In this document: one piece after another, positions 8,782 through 58,117 of the stretch | Layout: every line of letters starts with the position of its first letter | Numbering within the stretch: the stretch's first letter is position 1 | NCBI GenBank assembly: GCA_002189035.1 | Contig: NEEC01000002.1 | Coordinates: 2,914,001-2,978,000 of the forward strand | Reading direction: 5' to 3' | Length of the DNA: 64,000 nucleotides | DNA from: Utricularia gibba | Lineage: Eukaryota > Streptophyta > Magnoliopsida > Lamiales > Lentibulariaceae | Notes under the pieces: model-generated | What the model was told of the DNA's origin: nothing | What the model saw: the letters and a program-made list of their open reading frames with translations, nothing else | Databases searched by the model: none | Translations under genes and position numbers: made by a program

Positions 8782-10459
8782 ATGGGAACGATGGTGGTAA
8801 GCGGTTTCGAGGTGTCGGATGAGTTATTGGGGACTGTTGTGCCGATAATTGTTTACTGGGTTTACTCAGGGATATATGAGTTATTGGGTTCCCTTGAGAA
8901 TTATAGGCTGCATAGTAAAAAAGATGAGGATGAGAAGAATTCGGTGCCTAAGAAAGATGTGGTCAAAGGGGTGCTGCTTCAACAGGCTGTTCAGGCGCTT
9001 GTTGCCACCATCTTATTTGCTGTATGTGTCGAAATTTCTGTTTTGGTTTGTTAGTTTCATTCATTATATGATGGATATCATTTATTGCTTTTGGGTGGTT
9101 GGTTAATAATAGTTTCGATTATGTGCTATCTTCCAGATATCAAGTGTGTGTACTTAATTGTTAATGAAGTAAATGCTTCGCTTTTGGGATTTGAATAGGA
9201 ATCCAGTTTCTTACCAGGAAGCATCTGTTTTATTTTGACGGAGTGTCTTTTGACAGAAAACCAAGGCTTCCTTCACTTGGGGTTTGTCTTTTTGCGCTGT
9301 GTATGTATGTTTTCATGCAGACCTCCTCTTTTGAGTAATGAAAACAAGAGCCTTTTTTTGAATGCAGAGGAAAATCTTAGGAAGTTTTAAGGTTACCCTG
9401 TTTCTTTGCCTGTTAAAAGTTGTGTTCACAGAATTATCTTTCCTGATGTACACAAGAGTTTCCTTTGCATGGCCATGCCTGTCTGATTGGCCTACAAAAT
9501 CCGAAAAAATTCTCTACTTATATCTCTTTGGGGGGTGGTTTTTTATGGATTCTTGTTGCTGTTGATATATGGTATTTGCCTCTGAAATTTCCAGTGGGAA
9601 TAAATATACGAAAAATTTATTCTGTATCTGAAAAAAATAGTGATTGTACTTAAGTGCTTGACTGTGCATGAACGTGCTACCGTGTTCTGTATAACTGTCT
9701 CACTTTAGGAACACTAGCGACGAAAACAATGCCAAATATTATAGCATGGCTATCTGAATATTTGGAAGTAGCAGTAATAGGTTACCTGCTATTTTTCACA
9801 AATAGGGGTACCTCCGTCATTAAGAGAACTCTGTGCTGTATCTTCCATAAGTTTTTCCCCTTGTTTACAGTTTCTTATTGGGTGGAATTCCTTCTCTCAG
9901 GTTACTTCAGATGTTGGCGATTCTGGACAAGCAGACTCAGAAAAGGCTTCTTTTTTTGTTCTAGCAAGACAGTTCCTAGTTGCGATGGTCATCTTGGATA
10001 CCTGGCAGTATTTCATGCACCGTTACTTGCATTACAACAAGTTCTTATACCGGCACATTCACTCGCAGCATCATCGCCTCGTTGTCCCTTACGCCTTTGG
10101 AGCATTATACAACCACCCTTGGAAGGCCTTCTTCTTGACACAGTTGGTGGAGCTTTATCTTTCCTTGCCTCCGGCATGTCCCCCGAACCTCAATCTTCTT
10201 CTTCTCCTTTGCCACTCTCAAAACCGTTGATGATCACTGTGGACTCTGGCTGCCCGGAAACCTTTTCCACTTTTTCTTCAGAAACAACTCCGCATATCAT
10301 GATATTCATCATCAGCTCTATGGGAACAAGTACAATTTCTCACAGCCATTTTTTGTGATGTGGGATCGTATCCTAGGCACTTACATGCCTTACTCGCTTG
10401 AGAAGAGAAGTAATGGCGGATTTGAAGCCCGGCCGGCCACAGACTGCAAGGAAGAATGA
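8782..10459 (+). CDS. sphinganine C4-monooxygenase (sphingoid base hydroxylase), frame broken twice
   Basis: An ER membrane di-iron hydroxylase that adds the C4 hydroxyl to dihydrosphingosine to make phytosphingosine (SBH1/SBH2 family). Two exons: 8782-9021 and 9901-10459. Histidine-box motifs are visible: HRYLH, HSQHH and, in the third frame, HDIHHQ. The family C-terminus with the motifs NFSQPFFVMWDRILGTYMP and GGFEARP follows. The reading frame shifts twice within 65 bases: near 10119-10121 (after NHP) and at the C run 10181-10184 (after GMSP). Each shift is what losing one base would cause, and conserved sequence resumes at once in the next frame. With both allowed for, the length would be about 266 residues, normal for the family. 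There are no other lesions, so assembly error is likelier than decay. Confidence 0.85.
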
Positions 10460-10974
10460 GGTTCATACGGCTTCCCTGTTAGTGCATTTGTATCAATATA
10501 GTGGCTTTTGTTTTCATCTACATCATCTGAGTGCTTCAAAGTGGTATATAAATTCATCTGCAATGATAACCGGAATAGTTTTGTCATTCATTCGTTTCAT
10601 GAGAGCCATCTTTCTGTTTCTGCTGTTTGTATTTGTGTTCCTTGTACGACGCACTCAGAGGGTTTTTGAGTTGGTCCTGTTCGCAGTTTAGGGGTTTTGA
10701 AAACTAATAAAATCGGTAGTACAAATAATAAGTAAACTGAACCGTTAACATCCCCTCCATTGGTGAGGATTGTTCTTTAGGTTTGAGTGTTTGGACATGA
10801 ATCTGGTGCTTTGAGATGAAGCAGCATCAAAACTTTCAATAACTTGGAAGCGACAATGTTAGTTGAACTGCCAGTGAATGGCTAAGAACATAACACGGGT
10901 AGGAACCAAGGGCATTTCGACGAACACAAAAGAGGATGGCTGGCTCGCTCATCTTTGGGGTCGCATTCCCATTT
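10460..10974. other. convergent 3' regions
   Basis: This stretch lies between the stop codons of the hydroxylase (+) and RPL34 (-). Possible polyadenylation signals occur near 10705 (AATAAAAT, + strand). No coding sequence is seen. Confidence 0.5.
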
Positions 10975-11915
<941 letters not shown>

Positions 11916-12207
11916 TTTCCCTGCTAATCCGGCGTCTTCTGTCTCTCGAGCTTACGGCGGTTCTAGAGCTACGCGATGAGACATGAACCAACGTATATAT
12001 AACTTGGTTTTTGCCCTAGTCTAAATGGGCCCAACCCTTCAAACCCGTGATTTCTTATTGGACTTTGTTTACAAAACCCAATTATAAACGGTTCGGTCCA
12101 GCAATAAAATCAGATTATGATATTGGGTCTGGCCCAGCCATCGAATGCTCCGCCGCCGCTTCATCAGAACGCCGAAAAAATCCGTATTTTCCGACAAGCG
12201 CTGCGGC
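11916..12207. promoter_or_regulatory. bidirectional promoter, RPL34 / mitochondrial bL32
   Basis: Only 292 bases separate the two start codons. A TATA-like element on the minus strand (TTATATATACG, about 11993-12003) sits some 80 bases upstream of the RPL34 ATG. Site-II-like TGGGCC/GGCCCA motifs occur near 12026 and 12131. Such motifs are typical of plant ribosomal-protein genes, so shared control of the two is plausible but inferred. Confidence 0.6.
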
Positions 12208-13399
12208 ATGGCGTTGAGAGTGGGGAATCGAGGAAGCGCATGTAGTATAGCGAAGATTGATCACGTATTTGGGGGATTTTTCCGGTGGATCCATGCAGCT
12301 CCACGACCGTTGCCGCCGCTGGAGAGCTCCGTTTTGAAACTTGGTCCCACGGAAATGCCTCCCTTGGTTTCACCGGAGAATCGAAGCGGTTTCGGTATCG
12401 GTATCGGTATCGGGATTTTGATTCCGAGATTTTCGTCATTTCTCGGGTCAATGGAACTGATGGCTGTTCCAAGAAGAAAGTAAGCTTCAGTTTCGGGGTG
12501 TTTAGGTTTTTTTGATTGTTCCCTGGATTAAACAAATGCACATGGTTTTTCTTTTGGAATATGATAAGTGCGTAGAATTTTTTATGCAATGCATGACGTG
12601 GTTTGCTGTTTTGGTATTGCTAATTCATCATTAATGTGCTTTTGGGTCTTTTCTGCGAAAGCATCTCCGATATATATCTTTAGGTGTTGGTCATCTGATT
12701 ATGCTGTGAATCATTTCAGAAGTCCTACTTCAATTGACTTTGAGTTCTTGTATCAGACAACCCCTCACAAGAAGGGAATCAGGAACGGACCCAAGGCTCT
12801 GAAGCCTGTTCCCGTGATCATTCGTTGCAAGTATGTACTTTTTGCAAGAAAAAAATGTGGTTATAAATTCGAAAGATGCCTCTACCTGATTATTTGATTC
12901 GTTCTTCGCAAGACTACATGGAGCATCTGTAGTAAGACTGAATGATAGCTTGCTCATTGATGCCAGTGCCTACATGAAATATATTTTTTTCGACTTCACA
13001 ACAGTAAATTTGGATTGTAGCTTTTATTCCCTATTTCAGACGCCTGTAACAGCTGAATCACCTGCCATTATTCATGTCTAAGCTTGGTGTTTGCCCCGAA
13101 TTTATTAACATTTTCTGCCTTGCCTTAGTTCCATATTTTGATCCCTTGGAGAGGCCTTCTACCATATTATCGGATTCAATCATGAAAGTTTCTTGCTGAT
13201 CAATGCCAATGCTTGCGTTGGAAAACCTGTTTGTGTGATACTCTTGTTTGCTAGGCAGCGCCGAATCAGGTTACAGCATGTCATTTTTGCCTGGGTTTCA
13301 AGCCATGACTATGTCTTTTATGTTTTCAGGGTGTGTGGCCGTGTGAAGCTACCGCACTTCTACTGTTGTAGTGGGGTTAAGCCCAATCCAGGCAGTTGA
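12208..13399 (+). CDS. mitochondrial large ribosomal subunit protein bL32m
   Basis: A nuclear-encoded L32p-family protein for the mitochondrial ribosome. Three exons (12208-12479, 12720-12830, 13330-13399) join in frame to 150 residues. The ATG at 12208 starts an Arg/Ala-rich leader (MALRVGNRGSACS, FFRWIHAAPRPLPPL) that looks like a mitochondrial presequence; an upstream in-frame ATG at 12145 is possible. The bL32 core begins MELMAVPRRK and continues with KKGIRNGPKALKPVPVIIRC and the zinc-ribbon motif CKVCGRVKLPHFYCCSG. The only acceptor that keeps frame adds about 14 residues (SPTSIDFEFLYQTT) between the two core motifs. From memory, plant homologues are shorter here, so this junction deserves a transcript check. 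Confidence 0.87.
12390..12415 (+). repeat. hexanucleotide tandem repeat in bL32m exon 1
   Basis: About four head-to-tail copies of GGTATC, in frame, encode a Gly-Ile repeat (GIGIGIGI) in the leader of the mitochondrial ribosomal protein. Because the unit is six bases, gain or loss of copies would not shift frame. Confidence 0.85.
12480..12719 (+). other. first intron of bL32m
   Basis: The donor GTAAGC at 12480 and acceptor TTTCAG ending at 12719 bound this intron. A second possible acceptor (TATCAG, just upstream of the PHKKG codons) is out of phase with the donor. Confidence 0.7.
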
Positions 13400-13902
13400 C
13401 CATGAGGGCTTATAGTGTATGCTTCTAAATCCAGTTTTTCATGCCAAGTAACAAGCTTTTGTACCGAGGTTTCTTTAGCAAGAAATGCACAAGCTTTTTC
13501 GTATTGGGATTTCAAGGGCATCATTTTACAGCATTGGATCTCGTTTTTGCGTGGCATTTTATAATCATCTCTTTAGGTTGTTGTTACCCTTTCATGATTT
13601 AGCCAATCGCAAGGATAAGCTTGAAGCCGTGGTGCAAACAACCTATTTTGATCACGTGGTCCACGTTTCTTATAGAAGGACGGTTCAAAGGGTGGCTTCT
13701 GGGTGGGCGACCCGACCCGGAGCTTGCCGGCTCAAGACTCGACAAAATATCTAAAGAACGCCTTCAACCTTCACAAGGAATTGTGAATCTTTGTGGTTTC
13801 TTTGCGTTCTGGAATTCTCTGCTCAAGCGGAACAAAAAAAAAAAAAAACGACATACACACAAGGCCGAGGAAGAGTCAGGAACGAGAGCCTCGAGAACGG
13901 TC

Positions 13903-15052
13903 ATGGATTGTCTAACATCCGTCTCCGCAACGATCGTGCTCCCTCTCACGCGCCACCTGCACCACCATCGAAGCAGGCGAGTCAGATCTTTTTCCTTTAC
14001 ACGGAGCAAAACGGTTAACGGCAAACGAGGAGGTGTTCCGATGAACCGGAGAGTCGACTGTAGATCGAACCCGGGAAATGATCAGGAAGGAGGAAGCCGG
14101 CGTTGGAGAGATGAGGAATTGGAGAGAGCGCTGCGGTTGGACGGCGCGATCCCTGGAACTTCCGATGCGTTTGTCGAGCAAGTATCGTCACGCGCTTATG
14201 ATATGCGGAGGCATCTCCATCAGAGCCTCGATAGCAGCAGTTATGACGGTGAGCTCCTCTTTTTCCTCCCTGCAACCCCTGAGAACTTATAATCCTAAAA
14301 CGGCCTGTGGCAATGATCATTGGGTTCCACAATAGCTTGAGCACTCTGTGATTGCTGCAGTGTTGGAGGCAAATCCATGGAGAGAGGCAACAAAGTCTGT
14401 TTATGTCCTTACCCACCAGGAAAACCAGCTATGTACCATGAGAACTCGTCGAAATCGGAGGTTGCTCTGAGATTCATTCAAATATTTCTCTCGTTATTTT
14501 TACCGTTAAGCAGTTAAGAAAACATTTCTCTTGCAGAGAAGTCGAGAAGGAACTCGGGATTCTCTTCTCCAAGGGGGGAAGGTACGAAATCAGTCGAAAT
14601 CATCAGGTTCCAGCTCCAAATTTCAGATGTTGGTTGAAGATGTCAGAGAGGGTATACTTGTGAGTTCTCCCAATGTTGATTTCTGCGGTTGCAATTCGCT
14701 TTGAGAAGAAAGAACTTGAAACCAGCCTTCCTTCACGTTCCCTAAAAGGTATTCGAAGACGAAAATGAAGCTGCGAAATACTGTGACTTGCTTCAAGGAG
14801 GAGGTCAAAGCTGCGAAGGTGTTGCAGAGATAGACGCCACATCTGTAAGTAGAACACCACCAATCTCATTCCTCGTTCATAGCAAAGCATTTCTTCAGCC
14901 AAAAAAGTATGCAGGTTTTTGATCTGTGCCGGAGAAATAAAGCTCTTGCTGTTTTATTCCGCCGGGGAAGAACACCACCGCTACCTGAAAGCCTTAAACT
15001 CAACCTCGCTGCACGCAAGCGCTCCCTTGAAGACCAAGATGAATTAAACTGA
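13903..15052 (+). CDS. plant protein with DUF3110-like domain, one frameshift
   Basis: Five exons (13903-14248, 14361-14460, 14537-14659, 14749-14844, 14915-15052) encode about 267 residues. The N-terminus is rich in Ser, Arg and His and could be an organelle transit peptide. The middle and C-terminus contain SVYVLTHQENQLCTMRTRR, SEVEKELGILFSKGG, KFQMLVEDVREGIL and VFEDENEAAKYCDLL, then an FRRGRTPPLP segment and a Lys/Arg-rich end. The order fits the DUF3110 pattern seen in plants and cyanobacteria; the function is unknown. In exon 3 the frame changes at the run of six Gs (14573-14578): text before fits one frame, text after fits another, as if one G were missing. Codons are otherwise clean. 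Family call is from pattern memory. Confidence 0.7.
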
Positions 15053-15189
15053 AGAAGTAGTAAGATTCGTCCTTGGAAATTAATCTCCGCTGTCAATCGT
15101 ATAGCTGACTCCTGACTGTTACATCTCTAAAGCACTGATCCTCTTTGTGTCCGTGCCTCATCAGCTTTCAACAGCGCCGGCAAGGGGAA

Positions 15190-16435
15190 CTAGAGCCCCA
15201 AATCCCTCAACACTAACTCCACTTCTTCCACGACTCCTAGCTTCCTAAGCCACTTTGCAAGCGACATCGAAGCTTCTTCTCCGAGCACAACACCATCCCT
15301 CTCTAGTTCAACAAGCAGGTCTAATGCTTCCTTCAGCTTGTTTCCTTTTTCATGAGCTGCTATCACTAGAGCCACGCATTTGTCATTAGGTTCAACCCCT
15401 GCTCTCCTCATGTTTTCGAAAACAATGCAAGCTTCCCTGCCTCTGCCCGACTCAACATATGCATTCATGAGATGCCCACATACTCTTGCATCAGGAATGA
15501 TGCCCCGAGTTGCATTGCATCAAACACCCTCTGAGCCCCATCACCGTCACCCTCCCTCGAGTATGCTCTCAATAGAGCCTTGTAAACTTCACTCCCTGCA
15601 TAAATCTCAAGTTCTCCCATCTCCAGTAGCAACTTCTCCGCATCAGAGAGCCTTCCCGCCCTAACATAAGCCATGACCATCGCCCCATATGACCTTCGGT
15701 CTAACTGATCCCAAGCAGCTTCATCTCCTGGAACAAACTCTCAGCCTCTCAAAATCTCCCTTCTTGCTGTACATGTGAAGCAATGTGGTGAGCATCACCT
15801 GGTCGCACACGAACCCTTGCCATCATACATGTGAGTGTCTTCTCTGCTTCCTCTATCATGTTCCCCTTTGCGTGAGCATGTATTATCTTGGTGTAGTCAC
15901 GCACATTCGCCTCGAATGATTCTTCTGTCAAAGCATGTTCGGCAACCTAGAAATGCACCAAGAAACCAGCAAGTTCAAAGATGGATCAGTGGCATTCGTC
16001 TCTAGACACAGTCATACCTATTTTATCAACGACCAAAAACCAGACCTCCAAGTAAAGAGGATGATTCATCCGGCTCAGTTCTTTGAGAACCGAAAGCCAA
16101 TCAGCTCTTCTAGGGCTCGTACTCCTAACCCAGGCATCCAGCATTAGAGAAACACTCCCATTTTCAGGCGAATAGCAAATCATCTGTCTCATCAGCGCCT
16201 TAGAACGATTCGTCATCTTGAAGGCCAATTGGGAAATCGCCTCTGTTTGCTCCTGGGTGAAACCTGTCTTCACCCATTTGTATCTTGGGATCTTCGTCTC
16301 GCTCGCCTCCGCTGGCGCGAGATTGCCGTTCTCTTTCGACGCGCGGAGGACTTGATTTCTGCAGCAGAAAAATGGATGCTTCGGAAACCGGATTTCGCAT
16401 ACAAAAGAGGAGCTAAGAATGGGATACGCAGCCAT
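15190..16435 (-). CDS. pentatricopeptide repeat protein (At1g01970 type), frame broken four times
   Basis: A P-class PPR protein, likely an organelle RNA-binding factor. Exon 1 is 16435-16046 (start MAAYPILSSSF, an organelle-leader-like N-terminus, then the motif RYKWVKTGFTQEQTEAIS). Exon 2 is 15946-15190, starting VAEHALTEESFEANVRDYTK. PPR-like helix pairs follow (DYTKIIHAHAKGNMIEEAEK, SYGAMVMAYVRAGRLSDAEK, VYKALLRAYSREGDGDGAQR, MNAYVESGRGREACIVFENM) and the end is GVVEEVELVLRDLGL. In exon 2 the frame changes near 15814 (as two lost bases or one gained), 15745, 15707 and at the C run 15503-15506 (one lost base each). Conserved text resumes immediately after each. About 383 residues would be expected. 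Artefact or a recent pseudogene; I favour artefact. Confidence 0.8.
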
Positions 16436-17031: not shown

Positions 17032-19754
17032 TTAGTCCCAGAGAGCAGTAGTCGTAACGCAAGGTCTTGAAAGGAGATTCCGGACCTTTTCGTCGAACCG
17101 CGTTCGAGAAGACTTGGAGGGCATCTGCTTCTTCCTCCGAAACGAGGCATGTGACTGGATCTCTTCAGCAGTCAAAAGCGGTTTCAAGGACTTCATTACT
17201 GCCTTGAAGTGCCGGCTCGATACCGACGAGGATGCGATATCTTCCGAAGAGCATGATTACCGGCTTCTCGACATAGCCATTCCAGCTCGGCGCCGGTGCA
17301 GCGATCCGTCTCCTCCGCGATTTTCATGAGATCCACATCTGCTTCTACTTGCATTCTCCGCGTATGCACGCGGAGGATTTCGTATCGAGCTTCTACGTCG
17401 GGTGGTGGGACGTAAAGAACCTGTTGGATGTGCGATGAGAGGCATTGCTGTGGCGAACAAGAAATGATGGATGAAGTGAACTAACCAAGTCGAAGCGTCC
17501 AGGGCGCATGAGCGCAGAATCAATAGCATTTGGACGATTCGTAGCAGCCAAAACGAGGATCCCCTAAGCGAACAGAAAACCATGTAAGATCATGAAACTG
17601 GAAGCGCTGGGTAGGGTAGGGGATTGGTTTTCACCTTGGCCTGCTCCAAGCCGTCCATTTCAGTAAGCAAAGTTGACAGAAGTCTCTCTCCAACGGTTGA
17701 GCTCTTGTGTGAATTTGTTCCTCTGAAGTTTTCCTATCAGCTCGGTCAAAAAAGAAACATCTCTACATAAGCGGAGAAGTCTTACCTTTTCGCACCGACG
17801 ACATCAGCCTCATCAAAAAATATGATGCTTGGAGTAGCAAGTCTGGCTTTGCGGAACGTTTGGCGCAGCAAAGCCTCACCTTCACCAACATACATGTTGA
17901 AGAAATCTGCACCACTGACATAAGATGTGATTTGTATTTTGATGCTTGGACTTGAGAAATGAAAAGCCAGTCTCGGGAAAGGCAACTCTACCACAATGAG
18001 AAAAATGAAGCTTGTGCTCCACAAGCAGCAGCCTTAGCCAGGGTGGTTTTTGAGCAACCTGGTGGACCATGTAGAAGAATTCCACGAACGGGTGAGGCCC
18101 CAGCCTCGAAAAAGCTTCGGGATGCTTCAAAGGCCATTCAACCGCTTGCTGAAGTTTCTTCTGCACCCCAAATTGGATAATGTTAGCAGGCTTTAACACC
18201 AATGCTCACCTGTTGACGAGTCAATGGAAAAGGAAAACTACACACACCTTCAAGTCTTTTAGTCCCCCAATATCATCCCAGGAAACTTTGGGGACTTCAA
18301 CGGTAACGCCTCTTGTTATACTGGGACGAACTAATTCTCTAGCCCGGTACCAGTCATCCATGGTTATGATACAGTCGCTAGTTTCTTGGTGATCACCAGG
18401 TGAATTGCTGACTGCAGAAATGTTAGCCTCGCGACACAAAGCTTCCAAATCTGCCCCAGTGAAGCCCTTGCAAAAAGAAGCTACAGATTCTAGGCTGACA
18501 TTCGGAGCCATACGAGCATCCTCTTCACATACAGCTGATAATAAAAAAGGCATGAAAAATATTTACAAACTACTAATTTCTGAACAACAGCCATTACTTT
18601 TTAGAATTAAAAAAAAAGTTGCTTCGCAGGCTGATGTTAGAACTAATGACATGAGATGCAGGAATGAGATCATCTCAGAACCTGAAGTATTTGAACTCGC
18701 TCCTCTTCGTTAGGTAAAGAGACTTCAACCTCAAAATCAAAGCGTCCTGCACGTCTTAGCGCGGGATCAATCACATCCACCCTGAAGAATGAATATACCC
18801 TTTTATCCAGGTGCAAATACTTTGCGAAAAACATAAACAAGAAATGAAAAGTAGGCTGTTGAAATCCACCTATTCGTGGATGCAATGACTGCGACATGGG
18901 AACCGGATTCTGCCAGCAACCTGTTGTTGTCCATCAATACAATGAATTGTGAAGTAATGCGAACATCCTGCTCTCTCCTGCGTTAACAAATAAACTTACA
19001 TTTCAACTAGACTCATCAAACAACACCAACGGAAAAACAATGCCCTTTGTGAGGTATTACTACCTGGAGTCCCTCTTGGGGAAAAGTGCATCAATTTCAT
19101 CAATGAAGATAACGGAGATCTTGCCGGATTTTGAGCGAGAAAATGCCTCGGCAAAAGTATCGCGTAGAACTTTCTCACTTTCTCCAGCATGTGCTCTAAG
19201 AACTGAATCTGGGCTGTAAATGATAATCAACAAAGACATTAATTTTAGCCAGAAAAAAAATGGCATTGAAGCAGCGCTGAAGTTCATAAAACGTAAATTC
19301 TTAGCTTAGACCAAGCACTGAAACTATCATCTAGCACAAGAAGCCAGGTTCCATTACCTAATAACAATCAAATGCGCATCACATTCGCGAACCACGGCTC
19401 GAACCAAGCTTGTCTGAATCGTAAAGCCGAAGTTAGTTGGCTCTTTTACAAGAATACTAGAGGTTTAAGTATTACCTTTCCCGTACCAGGAGGGCCGTAC
19501 AGAAGCAATCCACAGGGCCACTGAAGAATAATGAAAACAAATACGAGTAAACACCAAGAAAAATCCAATTTATCGATTGCGGAAACTAAGCGACAGCGTC
19601 GAAGAATGAATAGCAGCACCCTGAGGCCAAGTTTTCGCGCCTCTTTGGAGTATAACACAGGATAAATAATATACTCTCGGAGAGTTCGTAAAGCTTCCGA
19701 GTTACCGGCTATTTCCTCCTCCGCCGTCCTCACGGTGGCGCCTACGGCGTTCAT
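17032..19754 (-). CDS. CDC48B: AAA-ATPase, cell division control protein 48 homolog B, frame broken three times
   Basis: A type II AAA+ ATPase with two ATPase domains; CDC48 proteins unfold or segregate ubiquitinated clients. Twelve exons on the minus strand: 19754-19620, 19520-19476, 19413-19358, 19213-19064, 18977-18870, 18781-18682, 18534-18248, 18160-17992, 17914-17786, 17722-17635, 17563-17486, 17420-17032, about 578 residues. D1 shows Walker A GPPGTGK, Walker [13 protein letters not shown] and arginine finger RRAGRFD. D2 shows Walker A GPPGCSK (in a second frame), [10 protein letters not shown] and MRPGRFDL. The GPPGCSK form and C-terminus match CDC48B rather than CDC48A. The frame shifts by one base in exon 7 (about 18509-18514), exon 8 (C run 18098-18101) and exon 12 (about 17244). 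Exon phases independently demand one extra base in exons 7 and 8. The start is the first ATG, 19754. Confidence 0.9.
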
Positions 19755-20022
19755 TTTCAAGCCGATCAACCAACAAGAAATGGCTAGTTCAAAATTCCCC
19801 AACTCCCCTCAATACCTAACGAGTAAATGGGCTCAAGGGAATTATTGGCCCAATAATAAGCCCAACAATAGTTTTGAACATCAGACCCATTGACTAACTT
19901 CTCGTCTGTTGAAAATTGACGATAGTCGTTTTTGTTTAGAATTCATTTCAGCCTTCATCGTTATCTTCTCGGAGCTGCAAAAAGGGAAGAGTTTTAGGTA
20001 AAGTTGATCTTCGAGTTTGTTC
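19755..20022. promoter_or_regulatory. divergent promoter, CDC48B / membrane protein
   Basis: 268 bases lie between two start codons pointing apart. ATGGGCTC, TTGGCCCAATAA and AAGCCCAAC motifs at about 19828-19868 resemble site-II elements found in promoters of growth-related plant genes. A shared promoter is inferred. Confidence 0.55.
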
Positions 20023-21003
20023 ATGGCTATGACGACTCAAAACCTGAATCTCATCGGATTACTCTCTGAAACGAAGCGCATAGTCAACGCCCACTCTCGC
20101 CACTTCCTGGCTCTCTCAGTTCTCTTCCTCCTCCCGCTTTCCTTCTCTGTTGTGGTTTACCCTTCACTATCGCGATCTCCTTTGATCGTTTCCCTACACC
20201 AGAGATCCATGCTGTTTGCTGAGTTTGATATGGGTCCGATTGAAAAACCCAGTTTGCTCCTGATGCTTTACGCCCTGTTTGTACTTCTTTTTTCCCTTTG
20301 CGGCATCGCTTCTATCACCTACAGCACCTTCCATGGATTCTACGGCAGGCCGGTGAAATTCGTAGCCTCTATTAAATCCATCATCTTTTCATTCTTCCCA
20401 CTTGTTTCAACTGCGATTGTTGCAACTATAATTGTGGGATTGGTTGCTTTCTCCTTTTGGGGCTTCACGATGCTACTTTTTGTTGGGGTTTCGATGTTTG
20501 GGGTTGAAATTGATCTCACCAGCCCTTACACAATGGGGTTTATTGTTATAGTACTGGTTTGTCTAGCCGCGGCGGTGATTTACTTGAAAATTGAATGGTG
20601 TTTGTGGAATGTCGTGGTGATTGTGGAGTCCCGATGGGGTTTCTCTCCTTTGAAAAGAAGCTCATATTTGATTAAGGGGATGAAACGTTTGGCTCTAGGG
20701 ATGCTTACGCTTTTTGGATGTTTAACTGTTGTCTTGTCTTTGATGTTTGCAACTTTGCTTCCTAGTGAAGATGGGATTGAAGGGAGTTGGATCAGAAGTG
20801 CTTTCATTTTCCAGATAGTGATTTACACAGGCTTCCTGACAATCTTGATGCTTTACAATGTGGCTGCAATCACTGTTCTGTTCATGCATTGTAAAGCGTT
20901 GCATGGAGAGCTGGCTATCGAGATTGCAGAAGAGTTCTCCAGGGAGTATATAAGTTTACCTTTTGATGATGGGAAAGTTCCTCATGTTGTCTACGTTGTT
21001 TAG
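20023..21003 (+). CDS. plant multi-pass membrane protein of unknown function
   Basis: An intact single-exon gene of 326 residues. After a short polar N-terminus (MAMTTQNLNLIGLLSETKRI) there are about six hydrophobic segments: HFLALSVLFLLPLSFSVVV, SLLLMLYALFVLLFSLC, VSTAIVATIIVGLVAFSFW, GFIVIVLVCLAAAVIYL, LALGMLTLFGCLTVVLSLMF and IVIYTGFLTILMLYNVAAI. Loops contain FHGFYGRPVKF and RWGFSPLKRSSYLIKG. The C-terminus is acidic and soluble, with EIAEEFSREYISLPFDDG. The pattern matches a plant-wide family of uncharacterised membrane proteins. Clean codon structure and length argue for a real gene. Membrane location is inferred from hydrophobicity; the function is unknown. Confidence 0.85.
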   Translation: MAMTTQNLNLIGLLSETKRIVNAHSRHFLALSVLFLLPLSFSVVVYPSLSRSPLIVSLHQRSMLFAEFDMGPIEKPSLLLMLYALFVLLFSLCGIASITYSTFHGFYGRPVKFVASIKSIIFSFFPLVSTAIVATIIVGLVAFSFWGFTMLLFVGVSMFGVEIDLTSPYTMGFIVIVLVCLAAAVIYLKIEWCLWNVVVIVESRWGFSPLKRSSYLIKGMKRLALGMLTLFGCLTVVLSLMFATLLPSEDGIEGSWIRSAFIFQIVIYTGFLTILMLYNVAAITVLFMHCKALHGELAIEIAEEFSREYISLPFDDGKVPHVVYVV

Positions 21004-26600: not shown

Positions 26601-26689
26601 TATTATTGATGGTGTCTAATATTAATAATATAAAGTCATTTTTTTTTTACCAATATTATAGAAGCTATTTTCTAATAGAAAGGTCAAAA
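23681..26689. other. AT-rich intergenic DNA
   Basis: The first 150 bases are the eIF5A leader and promoter. The rest is strongly AT-rich with no recognised genes. A 90-residue frame at 25882-26154 has no recognisable features. On the minus strand a strong TATA element (CTATAAATAGG) lies near 26191-26201, which could be the core promoter of an eroded LTR. Confidence 0.5.
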
Positions 26690-37867: not shown

Positions 37868-38480
37868 AATGTAACCCTCTAATTTAAATAGATTAACAAC
37901 CCATCAAAACAAGGTGATTTTGATGCTTAGAAAGAAATCCATACAACTCTACTCTTAAGAGAATAAATCTCATGCAACTAGACTATTAAAAAAATGGAAA
38001 TTAGGAGGTACACTTCAAAAAGAAGAGAAATTGGAAGTGATAATATTTAAACATCACAAATTCAAAAGCTTGATAAATCAAAAGTGATCAAACAATCAAA
38101 AGAGGAGAAATTCCATATAAGATTCATGAAAATGAACTAAAGATTCTTCAAATAATACATTTCTAGGATATTTATACTTTAGAGTTGAGCTCTAATATTA
38201 TAAAGCTCAAATTAAATTAAAAAAAGGCTATCAAATCCAATAGCAAACATCAATGATGATGACATGTTTTGGGCTTTAAGATAGATTGAATTTGAAATAA
38301 TTGAGCTCTTTTGGTTGAAAAAATTTAAACCCCACTTCTAACCTAATATGGTTGAGTAGATTCTTGAGTGTAGTTTCAATCTTCTTACTCTTAATCTTTG
38401 TGATTAATCCAAGTGAAATGATTTTGTTATTTAAAATATCTACTTGTGCCACATCCTCAATATTCTTTAAATGCTCATCA
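37868..38480 (-). repeat. 3' LTR of gypsy element A
   Basis: This segment is a degraded direct repeat of 45083-45700. Shared blocks include TTCAAAAGCTTGATAA, TCATGAAAATGAA, ACATCAATGATGATGA, CTAACCTAATATGGTTGAGT and CATCCTCAATATTCTT. Since the coding region between them reads on the minus strand, this copy is the 3' LTR. A purine-rich tract on the minus strand at about 38490-38525 is a candidate polypurine tract. Edges are approximate. Confidence 0.75.
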
Positions 38481-38899
38481 TTATTTTGCTGGGGTTCTTT
38501 ATCCCCCTCTTCTTTAGAAAGATTCATCCGTAAATCTACATCGATTTCGAAAAGGGATAAATCAACAACATTGAAAGTTAAATGAACAAAATAATCACCT
38601 GGTATCATTCACACGTTCAACAAATTGGAAAGGTTCATTTCCACAAGGATGAAGTTTTGACTTCCTCTTGATGGGAAACCTCTACTTCTTGAGATGAAGC
38701 CAAACTCAATCTCTAGGTTCAAACACAATTTTGCATCTACCCTTGTTTGATGTTGATGCATACTTTGCATTGCTGGACTCAATCTAATGTTTCACCTTCT
38801 CATACATTCTTTAGATTGCTTCAGCCCTTTTTGTGCCATCTAAACTAACTTTTTCATCACAAGACAAAGATAACATATTCAAAAGTGTAATCAAAAGTG

Positions 38900-39700
38900 T
38901 AAGAGGATTGAAGCCATAAACAACTTGGAATAAAGATAACCTAGTAGTGTGCACCATTCGATTGTAAGCAAATTCAACAAGTGGCAAACATTTCTCCTAA
39001 GTTTTAAGATTAGATTTAATCCAAGTAAGGTAGAAAGTGTGCGATTTGTTACCTTAGTTTGCACATTAGTTTGAGGATAACAAGTTGTTGAGTATAAGAA
39101 CTTATTGCCAAGTTTACACCAAAGGACTCTTTAAAAATGATTGAGCAATCTTGCATCGTGATCAAAGATGATTGTGAGTGGCATTTTATGAAGTCTAACA
39201 ACTTCTTTAAAGAAGAGATCAACCACATGAGATGCATTATTGGTTTTGTGACAATAAATAAAGTGTGCTATATTTGAAAATCTATCTACAACAACAAAAA
39301 TCGAATATTTACCTATTTGGATATGAGGTAAACCTAAAACAAAGTTGATAGAAATGTCCACTCAAGTTTGGGAACGAGTAAGAAGTGGAGTATACAAAGA
39401 TGAAGGGCAATTGTGGATTTAGCCTTCTTATAAGAAATACATTTATCACAAACTCTTTCAACGTCACTTCTCATGTGTGGTCAAAAATAATGTTGAGAAA
39501 GAGTATCAATAGTCTTTTTGTCACCAAAATATCTCATTAATATACTACCATTAGCTTCCCTAACAATCAAATCACGTATGAAATAAGAAGGAATGCACAA
39601 CCCATGTTTTCTATAAAGAAAGCCATATTTCCTAAAGAATAATCTATATGAAACAAGTTCACATGACATATTAATGCCCCCAAAATTATGTTCATAAGCA
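38900..39700 (-). pseudogene. gypsy A integrase remnant
   Basis: Minus-strand fragments match the integrase: a zinc-binding-like segment with LCIPSYFIRDLIVREAN and the catalytic core [20 protein letters not shown] with RFSNIAHFI. Frames are broken several times. Confidence 0.75.
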
Positions 39701-39805
39701 TATAAATCAATAATGGAGACAAATCATAGAATTCTAACATTAATCATCACATGCTCTTTACTTTTTTTTTATATTTAATCACATATGGAAATGTGTCAAT
39801 GAATT

Positions 39806-40200
39806 CCCATAACGACCCACTCACACCTAACACGATATTGTCTGCTTCGGGTACCCAACCCTCATGGTTTTACGTTTTCCCCACATTCCGTCCGACTTCC
39901 CAAAGGGTCATCCATCTGCACATTACCCCTGGGCAAGCATGCTTAACTCTGGAGTTCTTGTGAAGGATCCTCCAGTGTGCTAGGGAAAAAGCCTTGTGCT
40001 AGATTTATATAGTTATTCCTTCTTAATCTCATCCTCTCCCTCGTCTATGATCGATTTGGGATTCACCTAAGGCCCTTCCTTTTGACCCTTCCGTGGGGCG
40101 GGACGTCACATCCCCCCCCCCTCCCTTGGAAACTCAGCGTCCTCAATGAGGTTTGCCCCACCACCGATCACGCGTCTGAGTTTGGCTTTGATACCAATTT
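39806..40200 (-). mobile_element. Cassandra-like retroelement piece with 5S rRNA-related LTR
   Basis: Reading the minus strand there is a primer-binding site TTGGTATCAAAGCC (40197-40184), about 55 bases, a polypurine tract of A/G (40128-40111), then an LTR starting TGTGACGTCC at 40110. The LTR contains a 5S-rRNA-like domain (about 39970-39885): GGATCC, AGAACTCCAGAGTTAAGC, ATGCTTG, GATGGATGACCC and TGGGAAGT, in the 5S order covering box A and box C. This is the hallmark of Cassandra TRIM elements. The 5' LTR is not intact. It lies inside gypsy element A. Confidence 0.8.
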
Positions 40201-41101
40201 GTTATGAGCCTCTCGTTAGAGGATGAGATGATTTATTATAAAGAAAGACTACTGATACCACATACTACCTCGTTACCGACTCAGATCATAAGTGCAGTTC
40301 ATAATGCTTACCATGAGGGATATGCTAAGACCATTCATATAGTCATGTCCAAATTTTTCTGCCTGAAATGAAGGCCCAAATTCAAGAATTTATCAAACAA
40401 TGTGTTGTTTGCCAAAAGAACAAGATGGAGCAATTGAGGCCTACGGAATGCTGCAGCCTCTCCCTATTCCACATGCCATTTGGGCAGTATTTCCATGGAT
40501 TTTGTGGAAAGTTTACCCCCTTCTAATTTTAAACAGGTGATTATGGTTGTGGTGGATCGATTGTCTAAATATGCACATTTTATAGCTCTATCTCACCTCT
40601 TTACTATTGCTTTGGTTGCTAAACATTTTTTTGATGAGATCTTTAAGCTGCATGGGTCGCCTAAAACTATTGTAAGTGATAGGGATCGCATTTTCATTGG
40701 ACATTTTTGGAAGGAGTTGTTGGGATTACTAGGCACACGGTTATGTTACTCTACAATGTACCACCCGCAAATGGACGGCCAAACTGAAATCGTCAACAAG
40801 GTGTTGAAAACTTATCTTCGCTACTTCACAAGTGAGAAATTGAATCAATGGACAGCTTGGTTGCCATGGGCAGAATACTCCTATAACACGAGTTCCCACA
40901 GTAACCTGGTTGCCATGGGTAAAATATCTCAATTGAATTTATGTGTAGAGACAGCTTTTGGTAATTAATTTGACTTTTTCACATCTTACAAGATAGGGAA
41001 CGAGAAGAAGGCTGCGTTCAAGCCTCTGATCGCAGAAGATTTCGCTTGCAATTGTCTGGTGACGAGAGCTCAAGGAGTAGCAACGTCGGAGGCTCGTAAC
41101 A
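40200..41101 (+). mobile_element. gypsy B integrase fragment bounded by 13-bp inverted repeats
   Basis: The plus strand encodes a second gypsy integrase: a zinc-finger-like part (CVVCQKNK), then ISMDFVESLPPS, VVDRLSKYAHFI, SPKTIVSDRD and YHPQMDGQTEIVNK, with the catalytic D, D and E context visible. Upstream a frameshift separates the zinc part. The unit starts TGTTATGAGCCTC and ends GAGGCTCGTAACA, near-perfect inverted termini with one mismatch. It is opposite in strand to gypsy A, so it is a separate insertion. How it relates to the adjoining Cassandra-like piece is unresolved. Confidence 0.75.
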
Positions 41102-41109
41102 ATTTCACC

Positions 41110-47006: not shown

Positions 47007-48326
47007 TTATTTTTCTGTTTCATCGCTCAGCTCAGGAGCAGAGATGCGTCCAGAAGTGATGCCATTCTCTCCACTGCTGGTGTCTCTAGATGTAGCCTCA
47101 GGCTCAGGCCAGAAGTTGTCAAACCAGCTTAGATCAGCACCCAATTCATGGTCACCAAAAGACTCCACCGTGGAGTCTTCATCTGCATCTTCTTCTCCAA
47201 TGAGATGGAAGACGGTGTTCTGCATTTGGTGATAATCATCATCATCCGCCTCCCATGGATGTGATGGGTGATGATGGGCTCCTCGCCATTCTTCATCATC
47301 ATCACTGTCTATCTCCAAAACAAAGGATCTATTCTGCACAGCCCTCTTGTGGAGCATGAACACATTGAAGTAGTAGCTAACAAGTTCCATCATTGTGCGG
47401 TTTGGAAATGTATCCCTGAGGTGCCTCCAGAAATTTCTACCATGTGACTTAGGATTGGAGGATACAACCTCCTGAAAAATGAGCCTTTCTTCCGGGATCC
47501 ATTTTGATGCCACTGCCTCACCCATATCGTGGAAACCTAGATCCGAGAATTTGTCATTTCCAACAGCCCGCAGGAATTTTTCTCTCGCTTCCTCCACATG
47601 TTGTTGGACACATCTCATGGACCCCATGTCCAGGCAGCTGCATTCTGTTCTACCTTGCCCAGCTCTGAATCCGTCAACGTCTGAGTCATTTACATCAGGA
47701 AGTGACAAGACACAAGATCCCATAAGTCTCTGTTCCCGATCAATCTCCATAGACAGACTGTCATCGGAAATTCTGCTATGGCAACCACTAGCACCCCATA
47801 GAGGAACTAATGCTTGATGATCTGGGCCAATGGGAACTTGCTTCCTTGGGGGGCAATTGAATACAGTTGCATAAGGATCTACATGAGGTTCAGGGGATTG
47901 TTCTGGGATGCTTAAATGAATATATCCCGGAAGAGTTGACCAACCAGGGGTGCTTCCATTTCCAACATCTTCTTCATTACTCCTGGTGGTCACCAATAAT
48001 AATGGTTCGGTTGCATTTGGTTTTTTGTCAGTGGTTAAACCACTAACTTTTCCATCTTGAAACCCCAAGTCAAGCTCGAGTTCACAAAAATTGCTACCTG
48101 TGATATGTTGGAATGTTAATCAAAAGACAAATTTATTTCGAAACTAACCAGAAGCATAACTTTAGATGTACCACCCGACTAGCTTACCAAGGGAATAGCT
48201 AGTCTGATTCATTACACGAGATTCCTCTACATTTGATGGAGATTTTACGTAATATTCAACTAACTTGGACTGTTTGAAAGAAGGCTCAGGAAAATCTTCC
48301 TCGCCCCAACATCGTTTGATACCCAT
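47007..48326 (-). CDS. ELM2/SANT-like nuclear protein (At1g26580 type)
   Basis: Two exons (48326-48188 and 48097-47007) join in frame to 409 residues. The start MGIKRCWGEEDFPEPSFKQ is a typical N-terminus of this plant family. The middle has a SANT/Myb-like block: WIPEERLIFQEVV, NFWRHLRDTFPNRT and MELVSYYFNVFMLHKRAVQNR. The C-terminus is very acidic, with DSDDDEEWRG and a second acidic cluster. Proteins with this arrangement are thought to act in chromatin complexes; no direct function is shown here. Family resemblance is from memory of plant ELM2-annotated proteins. The frame is intact. The leader upstream carries a telomere-like CCCTAACCCTA and a long A tract. Confidence 0.8.
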
Positions 48327-51740: not shown

Positions 51741-52120
51741 ATGGAATCCTCACCCAACACTCTCCCGGCGGCGAGGAATGCAGCAGCAGCGAATCCGGGT
51801 GGACCAAGTACATCGCCTCGCCGGACGACGATCACCGCCGCTTCCAAGTAATCGAAGACGAAGAGGAAGAGGAGGAGCAGGGAGAGTATAGTGGTTTGAG
51901 TCTTCAACTCTGCAGAAAAAACAGGGACGCAGAGGACATAGAGAGTGATGATTCGATGGCTTCCGATGCGTCATCTGCTCCAAGCTGTAAATTCAGCTTC
52001 AAGGAGAAGAAGAAGCAGCAGCAGCATAAGAGAATGGAGATCAAGGCAGAGAATGGAAACGAAAAGGGAAAGTCTGTGCAGCAAGCTAATGGCGGTGAAA
52101 GAAGGATTAACAGACTGTGA
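51741..52120 (+). CDS. SOB FIVE-LIKE protein, frame broken once near the start
   Basis: SOFL proteins are small plant proteins linked to cytokinin level. Both family signatures are seen: domain A (ESGWTKYIASP, near residue 15-25) and domain B (DDSMASDASS). A Lys/Gln-rich tail follows (KEKKKQQQHKRMEIK), ending INRL. The ATG at 51741 starts MESSP but in a different frame from the rest. The change lies at about 51753-51755, a CCC run, as if one C were missing. About 126 residues would result. No other in-frame ATG precedes domain A. Confidence 0.78.
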
Positions 52121-52990: not shown

Positions 52991-54690
52991 TCAGAATCTA
53001 CGAGAATTCCCAAGCCTTGGGCTCTGCTGCTTCCCAAGAGTCGCAGCCTTGCGTTTGGCAAACGCGGGCGGGAGAAGCTCCTCAAACTTGTCCATGAAGG
53101 AGCTCCAGTCCGCGTTGTTCAGGTCAGCTACCTCCACGAAGCTGGCGCTAGGAGGCAGCAGCTCATCTGCGCTTGCTCCGCGAGGAGAAAAAGAATTCCA
53201 TTGTTTCTGCTTTGAGATGGTAAAGATCTTGCTTGGGCTTTCACTAAACGGGGACTCCCTTGGGTGTCCATTGTCCTTTTCCTTGATGGTTGCCGCCTTA
53301 GAACCATTGAACTGAGATCCAGGATTAGTAAGCGTTTCTTCAGCTGTAAGAAGGCGTCTTGCTTGGATACATATGGACTCAAGCTCACTGGGTTGCTCTT
53401 CAGTATTTCGAAACTCCCGAGTCATCATCTCCCCGATTTCAGCGAGACAGAGGCCTGAGGAAGCAGCTGCCTTGAGGAAGACTGTGCAAAGGAACAAGAC
53501 TCGTAAACTAGCATCACGAATCATGGGAAGCTCGGAGAGCAGCATCTGTGCATCACGGCTGGGATCAAGATCTTCGATGTACTCAAGCTCATCATCGGAG
53601 AAAGGAACTGAAGCCTGAGGCCAATGGATCCACTCAAAGTAGGGATCCTCCAAAGTCTCAGGCAAACATAGGCCATGATCGATTGGAATCAGTTCAGCGT
53701 CACCTCCAGCTCCATCAAACTTTCTAACTAAAATATTACCCGCATGCCTGTCAGTGTTGAGAATCCTAACATCTAAAATTCCGATTCGATGAACAAAAGA
53801 AACGGGGAAACATGATGTTCCGTGATCATTAGCATCACAATCATGGGGCACGAAGTGTTGGAAGGATGCAATCTTGGTACGAATATCCTTATTTTGAGCC
53901 ATGAGCCCATCCATAAAATCATTAACGTTGAAGATTGAGTGACTGATTTTCACAAGTGCAGTAGGTGGCACATTTGCAGAGTGATCATAATCAAGGAGAT
54001 AAGCAGCGACCTCTCTGTATCCAGTTTCCCCAACTCTCACGGACTGCTTTAGGCCAGGACGTCCAAGAGCTTTGCCTACAAAACCCTTTGGATTGTTGGG
54101 TGCAAATGGCTCTTCGTCTGTAGGTTTCACAATGGCCACACTTTCGCCTCTAATGTTTCGAAAATAGTACGCACCCCAAGCCCACTACGAACAGGGATAG
54201 GATCAATACCATTTTTCACAGCCATGACAATTTCCTCAACCAACTTTTTTGTGTTTGCAAAACACGTTGAGTGCCCCAGAATCTCTATAGGGCCACTCTG
54301 ATCCCTCTGATGGATATCTGTGCCTGTTGCGGAGAGACAAGGAGTTGATGAGCTTCTGTGAAGTAAGTTCCTCATCAATAATAAGGGAGAATCATTCCGT
54401 ATAGCTCTAAGATCATTTTTCAAAACCGCATCACCGAATGTCAGCGAACTCTCTTCGATGGGGAAATTTACAGCAAGCTGCAGCCTCCTCTTCACGGTAC
54501 GTGCATTGTCATCCCTCTCCAATTCCATCCCCAGTAGGAAACCAGTTTCAGTTTGCACAAAAACACTTCTCCTACCGGTCGATTTGCTTCCAAACCAATT
54601 GGACCCATGGCACTGCCCATTGCCAAAGGGGCTATCGAAAACAGACACAGCCGCCAGTGTCTGCACAGGACTATCAACCTCGCGAGACAT
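52991..54690 (-). CDS. phosphatidylinositol 4-kinase gamma (PI4KG5/6 type), frame broken once
   Basis: A plant type II PI4K-like protein with an N-terminal ubiquitin-like region and a PI3/4-kinase catalytic domain; some family members act mainly as protein kinases. It is effectively a single coding exon of about 566 residues. It starts MSREVDSPVQTLAAVSVF. The ubiquitin-like part has FVQTETGFLLGMEL, VKRRLQLAVNFP and HRSSSTPCLS. The kinase part has AIVKPTDEEPFAPNNPKGFV, GETGYREVAAYLLD, catalytic RILNTDRHAGNILV and IPIDHGLCLPETLEDPYFEW. The frame changes at the CCCC run 54174-54177 (GGGG in the gene sense), exactly where the family has a Gly-Gly-Ala-Tyr-Tyr motif. No other lesion is visible. The start is followed by a clean frame. 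Confidence 0.9.
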
Positions 54691-56614
54691 CGAAAGTTGA
54701 TATAAGACGGCACAGCTCAATAGGAACGGTGCCAAGCCTAATCAGAAACAGGACTACCACTCTCTGAACATAAAAATATCCTGAGGAGCTACAGACATGA
54801 TACTTCGGAAGCCCAGAGAGTAGATAGTGGACGAAATTTATGGGTCAACTAATCGAGAGAGCCATGAGCAATCCCAACTCAAACCAGAATCTGCAATTCT
54901 TAAAAACATCTTTTTAGTGCACAGAAACTGGTAAACTAAGAAAACCAAAAAAAATGAATATTTTCTTCATGCCAAATCACATATAACAAGACAGCATGAC
55001 ATAGAGCTCAGAAGCATCTAGTATTTTGGCAAGTAAAATCATGATCCACAAACAAAGTGCAGCTTACATAGAATTCACAAACTCCACCGCACATACTTCC
55101 AGCACATCTTCATGCCAAATCGCATATAAGCAGCACTTTAATTCAAAAGACGACCTTACTTCCAAGAGATTGACACAGCAAATTCCTTAACCACAAAAAG
55201 GTATGAAATTACAGAAAATAGCGACACGGCTTGCACTTACCAGAAAATCAGCTAAGCCGGATGGAAAGAACACAGGACTCCTCAGAAACCGGATAAACCA
55301 ACTCAACAAACACTTCAGATCTGAAGAAACTCACGCCTCTCCTCTCCGATACGGCACCGTCCGCTTGATCAACCACTGGAAGATCCTCACAGAACGATCG
55401 CCGATCGAAAGTAACGGCTAGTTTCCGGTTCCAGGGAGCCACCAAAACCTCCTGCGCTCTCCACTGTGCTCGTTCACCTGCTTTCTATATATATACTGTA
55501 CATCTTTCACGACTCACGCTTTCTCAACACGCCGTGCTGCGATCGCAGCCGTCCAAAGCAAATGGTACCACGTATCGTAGCCGTCAATAGTGTGTAGATA
55601 AAGATGGGGCAAATGACGTGTAAAAATGTCAGCTATTTCCCATTGGCATCTATTCCACCGAAGGCTACTAATTATTATATTTTTACTTTAAAAAAAATAT
55701 TCAATTTCAAAGCTCATTTGGTGTCAAACTTTATTGTATTTTTTGTCAAAAAAATATTGGCATTTTTTAAGAATCTAAAAACTATCTACAGGACCCACGT
55801 TTGAACTTCAACGATGACGCAATAAAACTATTCCAAGATTATTCACGTCATTGTCGAATCAAAAAAGATTATTCATATAAATCCACAATAAAAAGTCCGA
55901 TATTCACAATTAAATGGGATTATTAGTTTTTTAAAGTTCTAATTAAATTTATATTTGTGAATGAGCAAAATAAATCAAGAATATAGATTTTTTAATATAG
56001 AATTGGAAAAGTTAAAGAACACAAAATTGTTAGATACAGCTACTTGAGCCAGCAATTCCATTGCAATGAAAAGGCAGTGTAGCAGTCCTTCAAACATGTC
56101 CTGGGTCGTCGTCCTTCCATGAAAGTCATTCATATTATTGCATTCCATAGAATAGAAGAAAGAATAACTTTCATGGAAGAGATCACTAATGAACCCAGGA
56201 AGATATCTGCATTGCTCAGTTAAGATTCATCTTCCCACAATGAAATCTCACATTTCAGGCGATTAAGCTTCCATTTTGGCTCGAAGGACAAAAGGCCAAT
56301 ATAGAGAAGCCAGTTTGGAGTAGATGCCATACAGCTCTAGCACATAGACCAAGCCTCACTTGCAAACATTAACAAAAATAGATAATGAAATATGGATCCA
56401 CAGGATTTCCCTAATGCAGGGAAAAGAAATATAAGCACACATATTTTGCCGCAAAGACCAATAAAATGATGATGTACAAGAACATTTTCAGAAGCCACCC
56501 TGGAGAAATAATGACAAATGAAGCACACCACCTACAGTATATTGACATTTATTGCAAAGAAACCAAAGGGATTTATCTCCAAAATCAACTTATATCTACA
56601 CTGATATCACCACA
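54691..56614. other. PI4K-gamma leader and promoter, intergenic DNA, gar2-related 3' region
   Basis: The PI4K-gamma leader probably holds an intron, since the TATA-like TATATATATAG (about 55486-55496, minus strand) lies 800 bases upstream of the ATG. AT-rich DNA without coding signal follows to about 56050, then the probable 3' untranslated region of the next minus-strand gene. Confidence 0.5.
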
Positions 56615-58117
56615 TCAAAATCTACAGCAGAAAATGCCAGATCCCCAGCCTGAGTTTTTCCTGTAATGTCGACGATCAGCTTTGGCCATTTTGACAGGAC
56701 TACTATTCCATTCAGATTGTATTCTGCAAAAGGATTTGTGTCGTTAGTAAGACTGAGCACTGTGGAATTCTTTGAATGCGAACAATACTAAGGAAGCATA
56801 CATCGGGAAAGCAAAAGATCTTCCACTTATACTGCCATCAGAGCGCATGGAGATGTTCCCAGGATGAGGCATTGGCTCGTTGAATGTTACTAGACTTGCT
56901 TTTGAGAAGCTAGACTCTCCCACATCGTATTTTTCTTGGTTGGGAACTGTATCATGCTTGGCTTGCCCACTGCTTGCAAGTTGAAATACCTCATCAGGAA
57001 AAAATACATCTAGAGTTTTTCTGTCCTTGCTTGAGAACTGCTCAGGGCCACCTCCATGTTCATCTTCTGGCAGCCCAGCTACAGATGTTGTTGGCTTACC
57101 ATCTTCACAACCCGATATTCCAGTAGGAATCTGCTTAATCAAAAATAAACGATGTCAACCTCCACATGGCTAATGGAGAAGTATGTAACGAAACGAAAAG
57201 CTAGCTGGACAAACCTCCAAGGAAAGTTGGTTGTCCTTATTTCCCTCATCACCGAAGGAGGTTAAAAAGGATCTGAAGATTCTTTGAGTTCCATTCTCTT
57301 GTGGAAGCTTACTACCTACGAGGGATCATTCCGTGAAACATCAGCTACATTCTTGGCATCTGTCCTTGAGTTTGATTCATGTCGCTGCACTGAGTTAACT
57401 GGAACATGGAATATAGATGGATACTGGGCTAGGTTGTTTCGTTGTTGAGATTTTGAACTTATTTGAGCATTTACTGGACCATACACACTCCCATCATCAT
57501 TGGCGGTAGAAACATCAAAAGAAAGACCTTTGGATCGGTATGACATGAAATGCTCCACTTCATATCCACCTCCTGTGCTTCCATATTTAACTGTGTTCCA
57601 AGAATCAGGTATGGAATTAGTAGACTGATCATTCTTATGGTTCACCTCGGTCATTCCTTTGCGACAATCTAATGTATCAAATACTAGAATACTTTTGTTG
57701 CTGCAAGGCTTGACATCCATCTCAGGTGCACAAATAGTCTTGCTAGAGTCCCTGCATTTGTTCACACTGTCTAGACTATTCTGAACTTTCTTTCCAACGA
57801 TTGGCTGACGTGATAGCTCACTATAACATTCTGCTCCTGATGAACCTCTGCTTTCATCTTCATTGTGAACAGAAAAATTAGCAAGAAAAGGGGACCAACT
57901 CGCTGCATCCCCACCTTCTGACTTGATAAATGACTGTGATATGTTACCCTTATGTTCGTCATTTAACTGGCATCCTTCCTTACTTTCCGAGCTATGAGGA
58001 TTAGCTCCCTCCCATAAAGCCTTGTTGCTGTAAATCATTGTGTTTTGAATTTCCTTCGTTCTCATATATTGTGGAGCTTGTTCACAGGTGCTGCAGGTGT
58101 ATGAAGATTCCTGAATT
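56615..58117 (-). CDS. 18S pre-ribosomal assembly protein gar2-related protein, one frameshift
   Basis: Three coding exons on the minus strand: 58117-57215, 57130-56802 and 56723-56615. The family C-terminus is clear: SMRSDGSISGRSFAFPI, QSEWNSSPVKMAKADRRHY and a Cys-Cys end (GIFCCRF). The N-terminal two thirds are polar and low in conservation (Ser/Asn/Asp-rich), typical of the family. Near 57317-57324 the frame must change by one base: it reads through NDPS to a stop, while VGSKLPQENGTQRIFRSF follows in the next frame, with no room for an intron. The start is probably Met at 58065; upstream codons in the first exon are uncertain. The product name is inherited annotation; function is poorly known. 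Confidence 0.75.

What the first reader, a model, noticed from the sequence alone, without database searches (positions are those of the whole stretch)
10119..57324. About 13 small frameshifts in seven conserved genes, nearly all at G/C runs
Seven genes (SBH, DUF3110-like, PPR, CDC48B, SOFL, PI4K-gamma, gar2-related) each read perfectly except where one base seems to be missing, mostly inside GGGG/CCCC-type runs. Nine others (RLCK, CBS, RPS9, RPL34, bL32m, membrane protein, eIF5A, POP1, ELM2-like) are fully open. Almost no nonsense substitutions accompany the shifts. True decay would add random stops; this pattern fits homopolymer under-calling in the assembly.
Basis: partly seen in the sequence, partly recalled or inferred. 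Interest (0 to 1): 0.75.

Follow-up and report, generated by a model that had tools for sequence, protein, structure and literature searches.

The report
Assembly errors that break plant genes
Seven ordinary plant genes look broken only because the long-read assembly dropped single G or C bases from short runs of the same base; the genes themselves are almost certainly intact, and the same error recurs across this genome assembly.

Summary
I find 13 reading-frame breaks in seven genes. Each can be read as one lost base (two at one site) in a run of G or C. There are no in-frame nonsense codons. The interpretation also holds: these are consensus errors, not decay. (1) One locus that this assembly holds on three contigs differs from itself mainly by missing bases; single losses fall mostly in G/C runs and there are few substitutions. 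(2) Across contigs, broken GRAS genes slip next to G/C runs far more often than chance allows, and A/T runs show no enrichment. In four gene families, 24 of 30 adjacent frame splits are net -1. (3) The doubly broken SBH copy is under strong purifying selection (dN/dS 0.06 against its intact sister) and is no faster than that sister. (4) The inferred error rate climbs with G/C run length, from about 1% at 3 to about 40% at 5. Contig sizes fit the published Utricularia gibba PacBio/HGAP assembly (inferred). Homopolymer deletion is the documented residual error of such assemblies. This is an artefact of low biological interest, but it bears on gene-loss claims made from this genome.

The parts
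10116..10118 (+). SBH (sphingoid base hydroxylase / FA_hydroxylase) break 1, CCC run called one base short (the lost base could also be the third base of the preceding His codon)
   Evidence: intact paralogs have one more base here
10180..10184 (+). SBH break 2, CCCCC run called one base short
   Evidence: all five intact paralogs have one more base
14573..14578 (+). DUF3110-like gene break, GGGGGG run
15814..15816 (-). PPR gene break 1, GGG run (net -2 or +1)
15745..15746 (-). PPR gene break 2, GG run
15710..15712 (-). PPR gene break 3, GGG run
15503..15506 (-). PPR gene break 4, GGGG run
18520..18521 (-). CDC48B break 1, GG run just after an intron
18098..18101 (-). CDC48B break 2, GGGG run
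   Evidence: joined frame aligns without gap to VCP-like ATPase 5vc7
17244..17245 (-). CDC48B break 3, GG run
   Evidence: joined frame aligns without gap to 5vc7
51764..51766 (+). SOFL-like gene break, CCC run
54174..54177 (-). PI4K-gamma break, GGGG run
   Evidence: both intact paralogs analysed read through here
57322..57324 (-). gar2-like gene break, CCC run
20008..21003 (+). intact single-exon membrane protein gene, contrast between the two clusters of breaks
47007..48119 (-). intact ELM2-like open frame, contrast

Best explanation
The breaks are consensus errors of the assembly. Single-molecule long reads (most likely PacBio CLR assembled with HGAP/Quiver, not effectively corrected with short reads) were collapsed to a consensus that, at short G/C homopolymers, often settled on one base too few, more often the longer the run. 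The seven genes are intact in the plant. Shown here: the breaks, their G/C-run placement, the conserved protein on both sides, recurrence across contigs, and error-type differences between three assembled copies of one locus. Inferred: sequencing platform, polishing history, organism, and that the reads carry the longer runs.
For: All 13 breaks lie at G/C runs, none at the more numerous A/T runs, with no in-frame stops in the joined proteins. Inferred error rate by true G/C run length: 3: 3/225, 4: 5/67, 5: 3/7, 6: 1/2, 7: 1/1. One locus is held three times (C414 end, C416 start, C422): 18 indels in 3.7 kb, 19 in 2.2 kb and 8 in 6.0 kb against 10, 4 and 6 mismatches. Single-base losses are mostly in G/C runs (G4, G3, C5, C3, C5, C3, G3, C5, G6, G6), in coding and non-coding DNA alike. 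GRAS genes: 8 of 15 slips lie within 9 nt of a G/C run of 4 or more, against 8% of random coding positions (p 6.5e-6); A/T runs show no enrichment (p 0.48). In four largely intronless families, 24 adjacent frame splits are net -1 and 6 are the other sign (p 0.0014). Eleven further -1 junctions in BAHD, KCS and UGT genes are enriched for G/C runs (p 0.002) and not for A/T runs (p 1.0). SBH window copy against its nearest intact paralog: 36 synonymous, 10 non-synonymous, dN/dS 0.057; its dN to outgroups equals that of the intact sister. PI4K dN/dS 0.13-0.15; broken GRAS genes 0.07-0.26 with no stops. Literature: a PacBio/Quiver plant assembly had 38,889 deletion against 8,611 insertion and 1,631 substitution conflicts with short reads, dominated by homopolymers of more than three bases, and 91 of 91 Sanger-checked indel sites went against the PacBio assembly (PMC4663752).
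Against: No reads were available, so no site is proven. Error density is uneven: many long PPR genes and most KCS genes on the same contigs are fully open, and the PPR gene has four breaks in about 320 bp. Three breaks sit at GG doublets as called, where homopolymer error is least expected. The triplicated locus lies at two contig ends, where coverage is low, so it may overstate the error rate in the middle of contigs, and there some A/T runs are also short.
Confidence: 0.96

Rival explanations
1. Real pseudogenisation: duplicates left by whole-genome duplication in a compact plant genome are decaying, and single-base deletions have fixed in them.
For: SBH and PI4K have intact paralogs elsewhere in the genome, so loss of one copy would be tolerable; the species inferred is known for gene fractionation.
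Against: No nonsense codons; dN/dS 0.06 and no acceleration against the intact sister; the PPR gene has no close intact copy in the genome (best other match 38% identity) yet carries four breaks; decay would not spare A/T runs; real pseudogenes here look different (psaA copy with about eight in-frame stops); the same losses separate copies of one locus in non-coding DNA.
Confidence: 0.03
2. A genuine, recent, genome-wide mutational bias in this plant that shortens G/C runs (for example a repair defect in the sequenced clone), so the frame breaks are real but young.
For: Would give young single-base G/C losses with no time for dN/dS to rise, on many contigs (compare).
Against: A repair defect would be expected to hit the longer and commoner A/T runs too; three assembled copies of one locus disagree with each other, worst at contig ends, which an inherited change cannot do; many core genes would be lost in one clone.
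Confidence: 0.01
3. The breaks are bridged in the cell by programmed frameshifting, RNA editing or unusual tiny introns.
For: Protein is conserved on both sides of each break.
Against: 13 sites in seven unrelated nuclear genes share no slippery heptamer that I could see, only a G/C run; insertional editing of nuclear plant mRNA is not known to me; ordinary GT-AG introns explain the other frame changes and none is possible in a one-base step.
Confidence: 0.005

Closest known systems
Residual homopolymer indel errors of PacBio CLR assemblies polished with Quiver (azuki bean, PMC4663752; Plasmodium, PMC5964635)
   Same: Indels dominate over substitutions and sit at homopolymers; in azuki bean deletions dominate; genes can appear frameshifted.
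   Different: Published cases stress all homopolymers or long A/T runs; here, in coding DNA of the window, all losses are in short G/C runs.
Gene-fragmenting false deletions in nanopore assemblies (Kastor, PMC12007338)
   Same: False deletions in homopolymers of two to eight bases, most at four to five; produce false pseudogenes.
   Different: That study found A/T runs worse than G/C runs; here G/C runs are worse, which argues mildly against nanopore as the platform.

Membership tests
Long-read homopolymer consensus error | Single-base losses placed in homopolymer runs | tested here: met
Long-read homopolymer consensus error | Error rate rises with run length | tested here: met
   small counts
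Long-read homopolymer consensus error | Losses far outnumber gains | tested here: met
   12 of 13 in the window; 24 against 6 genome-wide
Long-read homopolymer consensus error | Same locus assembled twice differs by such indels with few substitutions | tested here: met
Long-read homopolymer consensus error | Reads or cDNA show the longer run | not testable with these tools
   no reads or transcripts held
Pseudogene | Nonsense substitutions and in-frame decay accompany frameshifts | tested here: not met
   no stops in the joined proteins; contrast psaA copy
Pseudogene | Relaxed selection (dN/dS raised toward 1) on the broken copy | tested here: not met
   SBH 0.057, PI4K 0.13-0.15

The most novel reading that the evidence does not exclude
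The losses are real and young: the sequenced clone carries a repair defect that specifically shortens G/C runs across its genome, so that many core genes are freshly frameshifted.
Probability: 0.01. Interest if true: 0.7.

Novelty: not a real feature. Interest (0 to 1): 0.12.

Why it matters
As biology it is ordinary. As data quality it matters: at this density a good share of genes in this assembly will be annotated as split, truncated or lost, and any claim of gene loss, truncation or pseudogenisation that rests on this assembly alone needs read or transcript support. Intact genes in the same window show that the damage is patchy, so gene counts and single-copy completeness scores can hide it.

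Tried and rejected
A classifier that asked which single inserted base best restores similarity to a paralog was too noisy with divergent queries; it was replaced by a run-length comparison with random coding positions. An 18S rRNA control (RF01960) gave no answer. A plastid control turned out to be an organellar contig with a decayed psaA copy, probably plastid DNA in the mitochondrial genome; it served as a positive control for real decay instead. I considered whether the published truncated DCL3 of U. gibba could be such an artefact; the authors confirmed it by 5' RACE and transcripts (PMC8333044), so I did not pursue it. The apparent CDC48B shift near 17.72 kb was rejected as a splice-acceptor choice.

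Full report
What was checked. The window is nuclear plant DNA at C451:2914001-2978000 of a 100.09-Mb, 516-contig assembly. I read the seven named genes in three frames and located every frame break exactly. There are 13: SBH 10116-10118 and 10180-10184; DUF3110-like 14573-14578; PPR 15814-15816, 15745-15746, 15710-15712 and 15503-15506; CDC48B 18520-18521, 18098-18101 and 17244-17245; SOFL-like 51764-51766; PI4K-gamma 54174-54177; gar2-like 57322-57324. tblastn of the joined proteins against the window returns abutting matches in different frames at these places. The joined proteins contain no stop codon. One PPR site is net -2 or +1; the other 12 are net -1. The remaining frame changes in these genes are ordinary GT-AG introns, and one apparent CDC48B shift is removed by choosing a different acceptor.

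Gene identities. Pfam supports FA_hydroxylase (1e-25), AAA with AAA_lid_3 (7.6e-76 and 6.4e-25) and PI3_PI4_kinase (9.7e-45), and gives DUF3110 just below its cut-off. The joined CDC48B protein aligns without a gap across two of its three breaks to the VCP-like ATPase 5vc7, so the protein on both sides of those breaks belongs to one conserved domain. The SOFL and gar2 names are not supported by Pfam here (SOFL gave no real match, gar2 was not scanned) and rest on motif resemblance from memory.

Pattern of the breaks. In about 15.5 kb of coding sequence, all 13 losses lie at G/C runs although A/T runs of 3 or more are more numerous (470 against 299). Counting each run at its inferred true length, the error rate is 3/225 for 3, 5/67 for 4, 3/7 for 5, 1/2 for 6 and 1/1 for 7. 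A steep rise with run length is the mark of homopolymer miscounting. My exon boundaries are approximate and I placed the losses by eye, so these figures are indicative. At SBH site 1, for example, the paralogs would also allow the lost base to be the neighbouring third codon position.

Is it genome-wide? Independent tests do not depend on placement by eye. GRAS genes are mostly intronless. About 25 of them are open over the whole domain, and many others are split into two frames at almost no distance. A frameshift-aware alignment of ten broken GRAS loci to intact paralogs gives 15 slips; 8 lie within 9 nt of a G/C run of 4 or more, against 8% of random positions (p 6.5e-6), with no enrichment for A/T runs. 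Over GRAS, KCS, BAHD and UGT families, 24 adjacent splits are net -1 and 6 are the other sign, and the 11 net -1 junctions of BAHD, KCS and UGT are enriched for G/C runs (p 0.002) and not for A/T runs. These lie on many contigs. Against this, most KCS genes and many long PPR genes are open, so the density varies by region and by G/C-run content; the window is on the dense side.

The same locus assembled three times. One GRAS gene lies at the end of C414, at the start of C416 and inside C422. These copies differ by 18 indels against 10 mismatches over 3.7 kb, 8 against 6 over 6.0 kb, and 19 against 4 over 2.2 kb. Most single-base losses are in G/C runs, some in A/T runs, with most differences near contig ends. 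Copies of one locus that disagree in this way, in coding and non-coding DNA, show the assembly's own error type directly. Because two of the three copies are contig ends, the rate there is not the rate in mid-contig.

Selection. The window SBH copy, with two breaks, differs from its nearest intact paralog by 36 synonymous and 10 non-synonymous changes (dN/dS 0.057), has no other indel, and has the same dN to more distant paralogs as its intact sister (0.117 and 0.117 to L042). PI4K gives 0.13-0.15 against two intact paralogs; the broken GRAS genes give 0.07-0.26 with no stops. A gene with two old disabling frameshifts would not look like this. By contrast, a real pseudogene in the same assembly, a psaA copy on the organellar contig C515, carries about eight in-frame stop codons besides its frame slips.

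Origin. A review lists the U. gibba long-read assembly as HGAP, 88x SMRT, contig N50 3.4 Mb (PMC5793159), and another paper names a 6.8-Mb Unitig_8 (PMC8333044). Here C451 is 6,822,880 bases and C255 is 3,424,836. I infer that the window is from that assembly; it is not proven, and the 581 contigs quoted there differ from 516 here. The error class is documented for such assemblies: in azuki bean, conflicts with short reads were 38,889 deletions, 8,611 insertions and 1,631 substitutions, dominated by homopolymers of more than three bases, and all 91 Sanger-checked indel sites supported the short reads (PMC4663752).

Verdict. It is an artefact of the assembly with no new biology, but it matters for anyone using this genome to argue gene loss. 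The missing proof is read-level evidence at the 13 sites.

Noticed in passing
G000 contigs C1, C2, C505, C507, C515 (lengths): Their lengths (8,500,000; 6,192,500; 3,452,500; 642,500; 267,500) are all exact multiples of 2,500, which chance would not give; it looks like a chunking or cutting artefact of the assembly, possibly with lost contig ends.
   Followed up: no
L065 1579-2255 and 4965-5650 (C414 end) against L064/L067 (C422): Two near-identical segments of about 680 bp in inverted orientation, 2.7 kb apart, are present in C414 and absent at both places in C422; a mobile element polymorphism between haplotypes or an assembly error.
   Followed up: no
L068 about 1174-3322 (C515:70174-72322): psaA copy with about eight in-frame stops and frame slips next to an intact psaB, on a 267.5-kb contig; probably plastid DNA in a mitochondrial genome.
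   Followed up: partly
L063 (C451:831000-832000): Another SBH paralog that lacks one base relative to the window copy in a G-rich stretch near its 3' end, probably the same error.
   Followed up: partly
G000:C255:1682118-1683059; C402:1216543-1218138; C244:2105347-2106219: A PI4K-like and two GRAS-like loci with stops and several frame changes that look like genuine pseudogenes.
   Followed up: no
window 38279-40968: Fragments of integrase-like Ty3-type retrotransposon reading frames on both strands.
   Followed up: no
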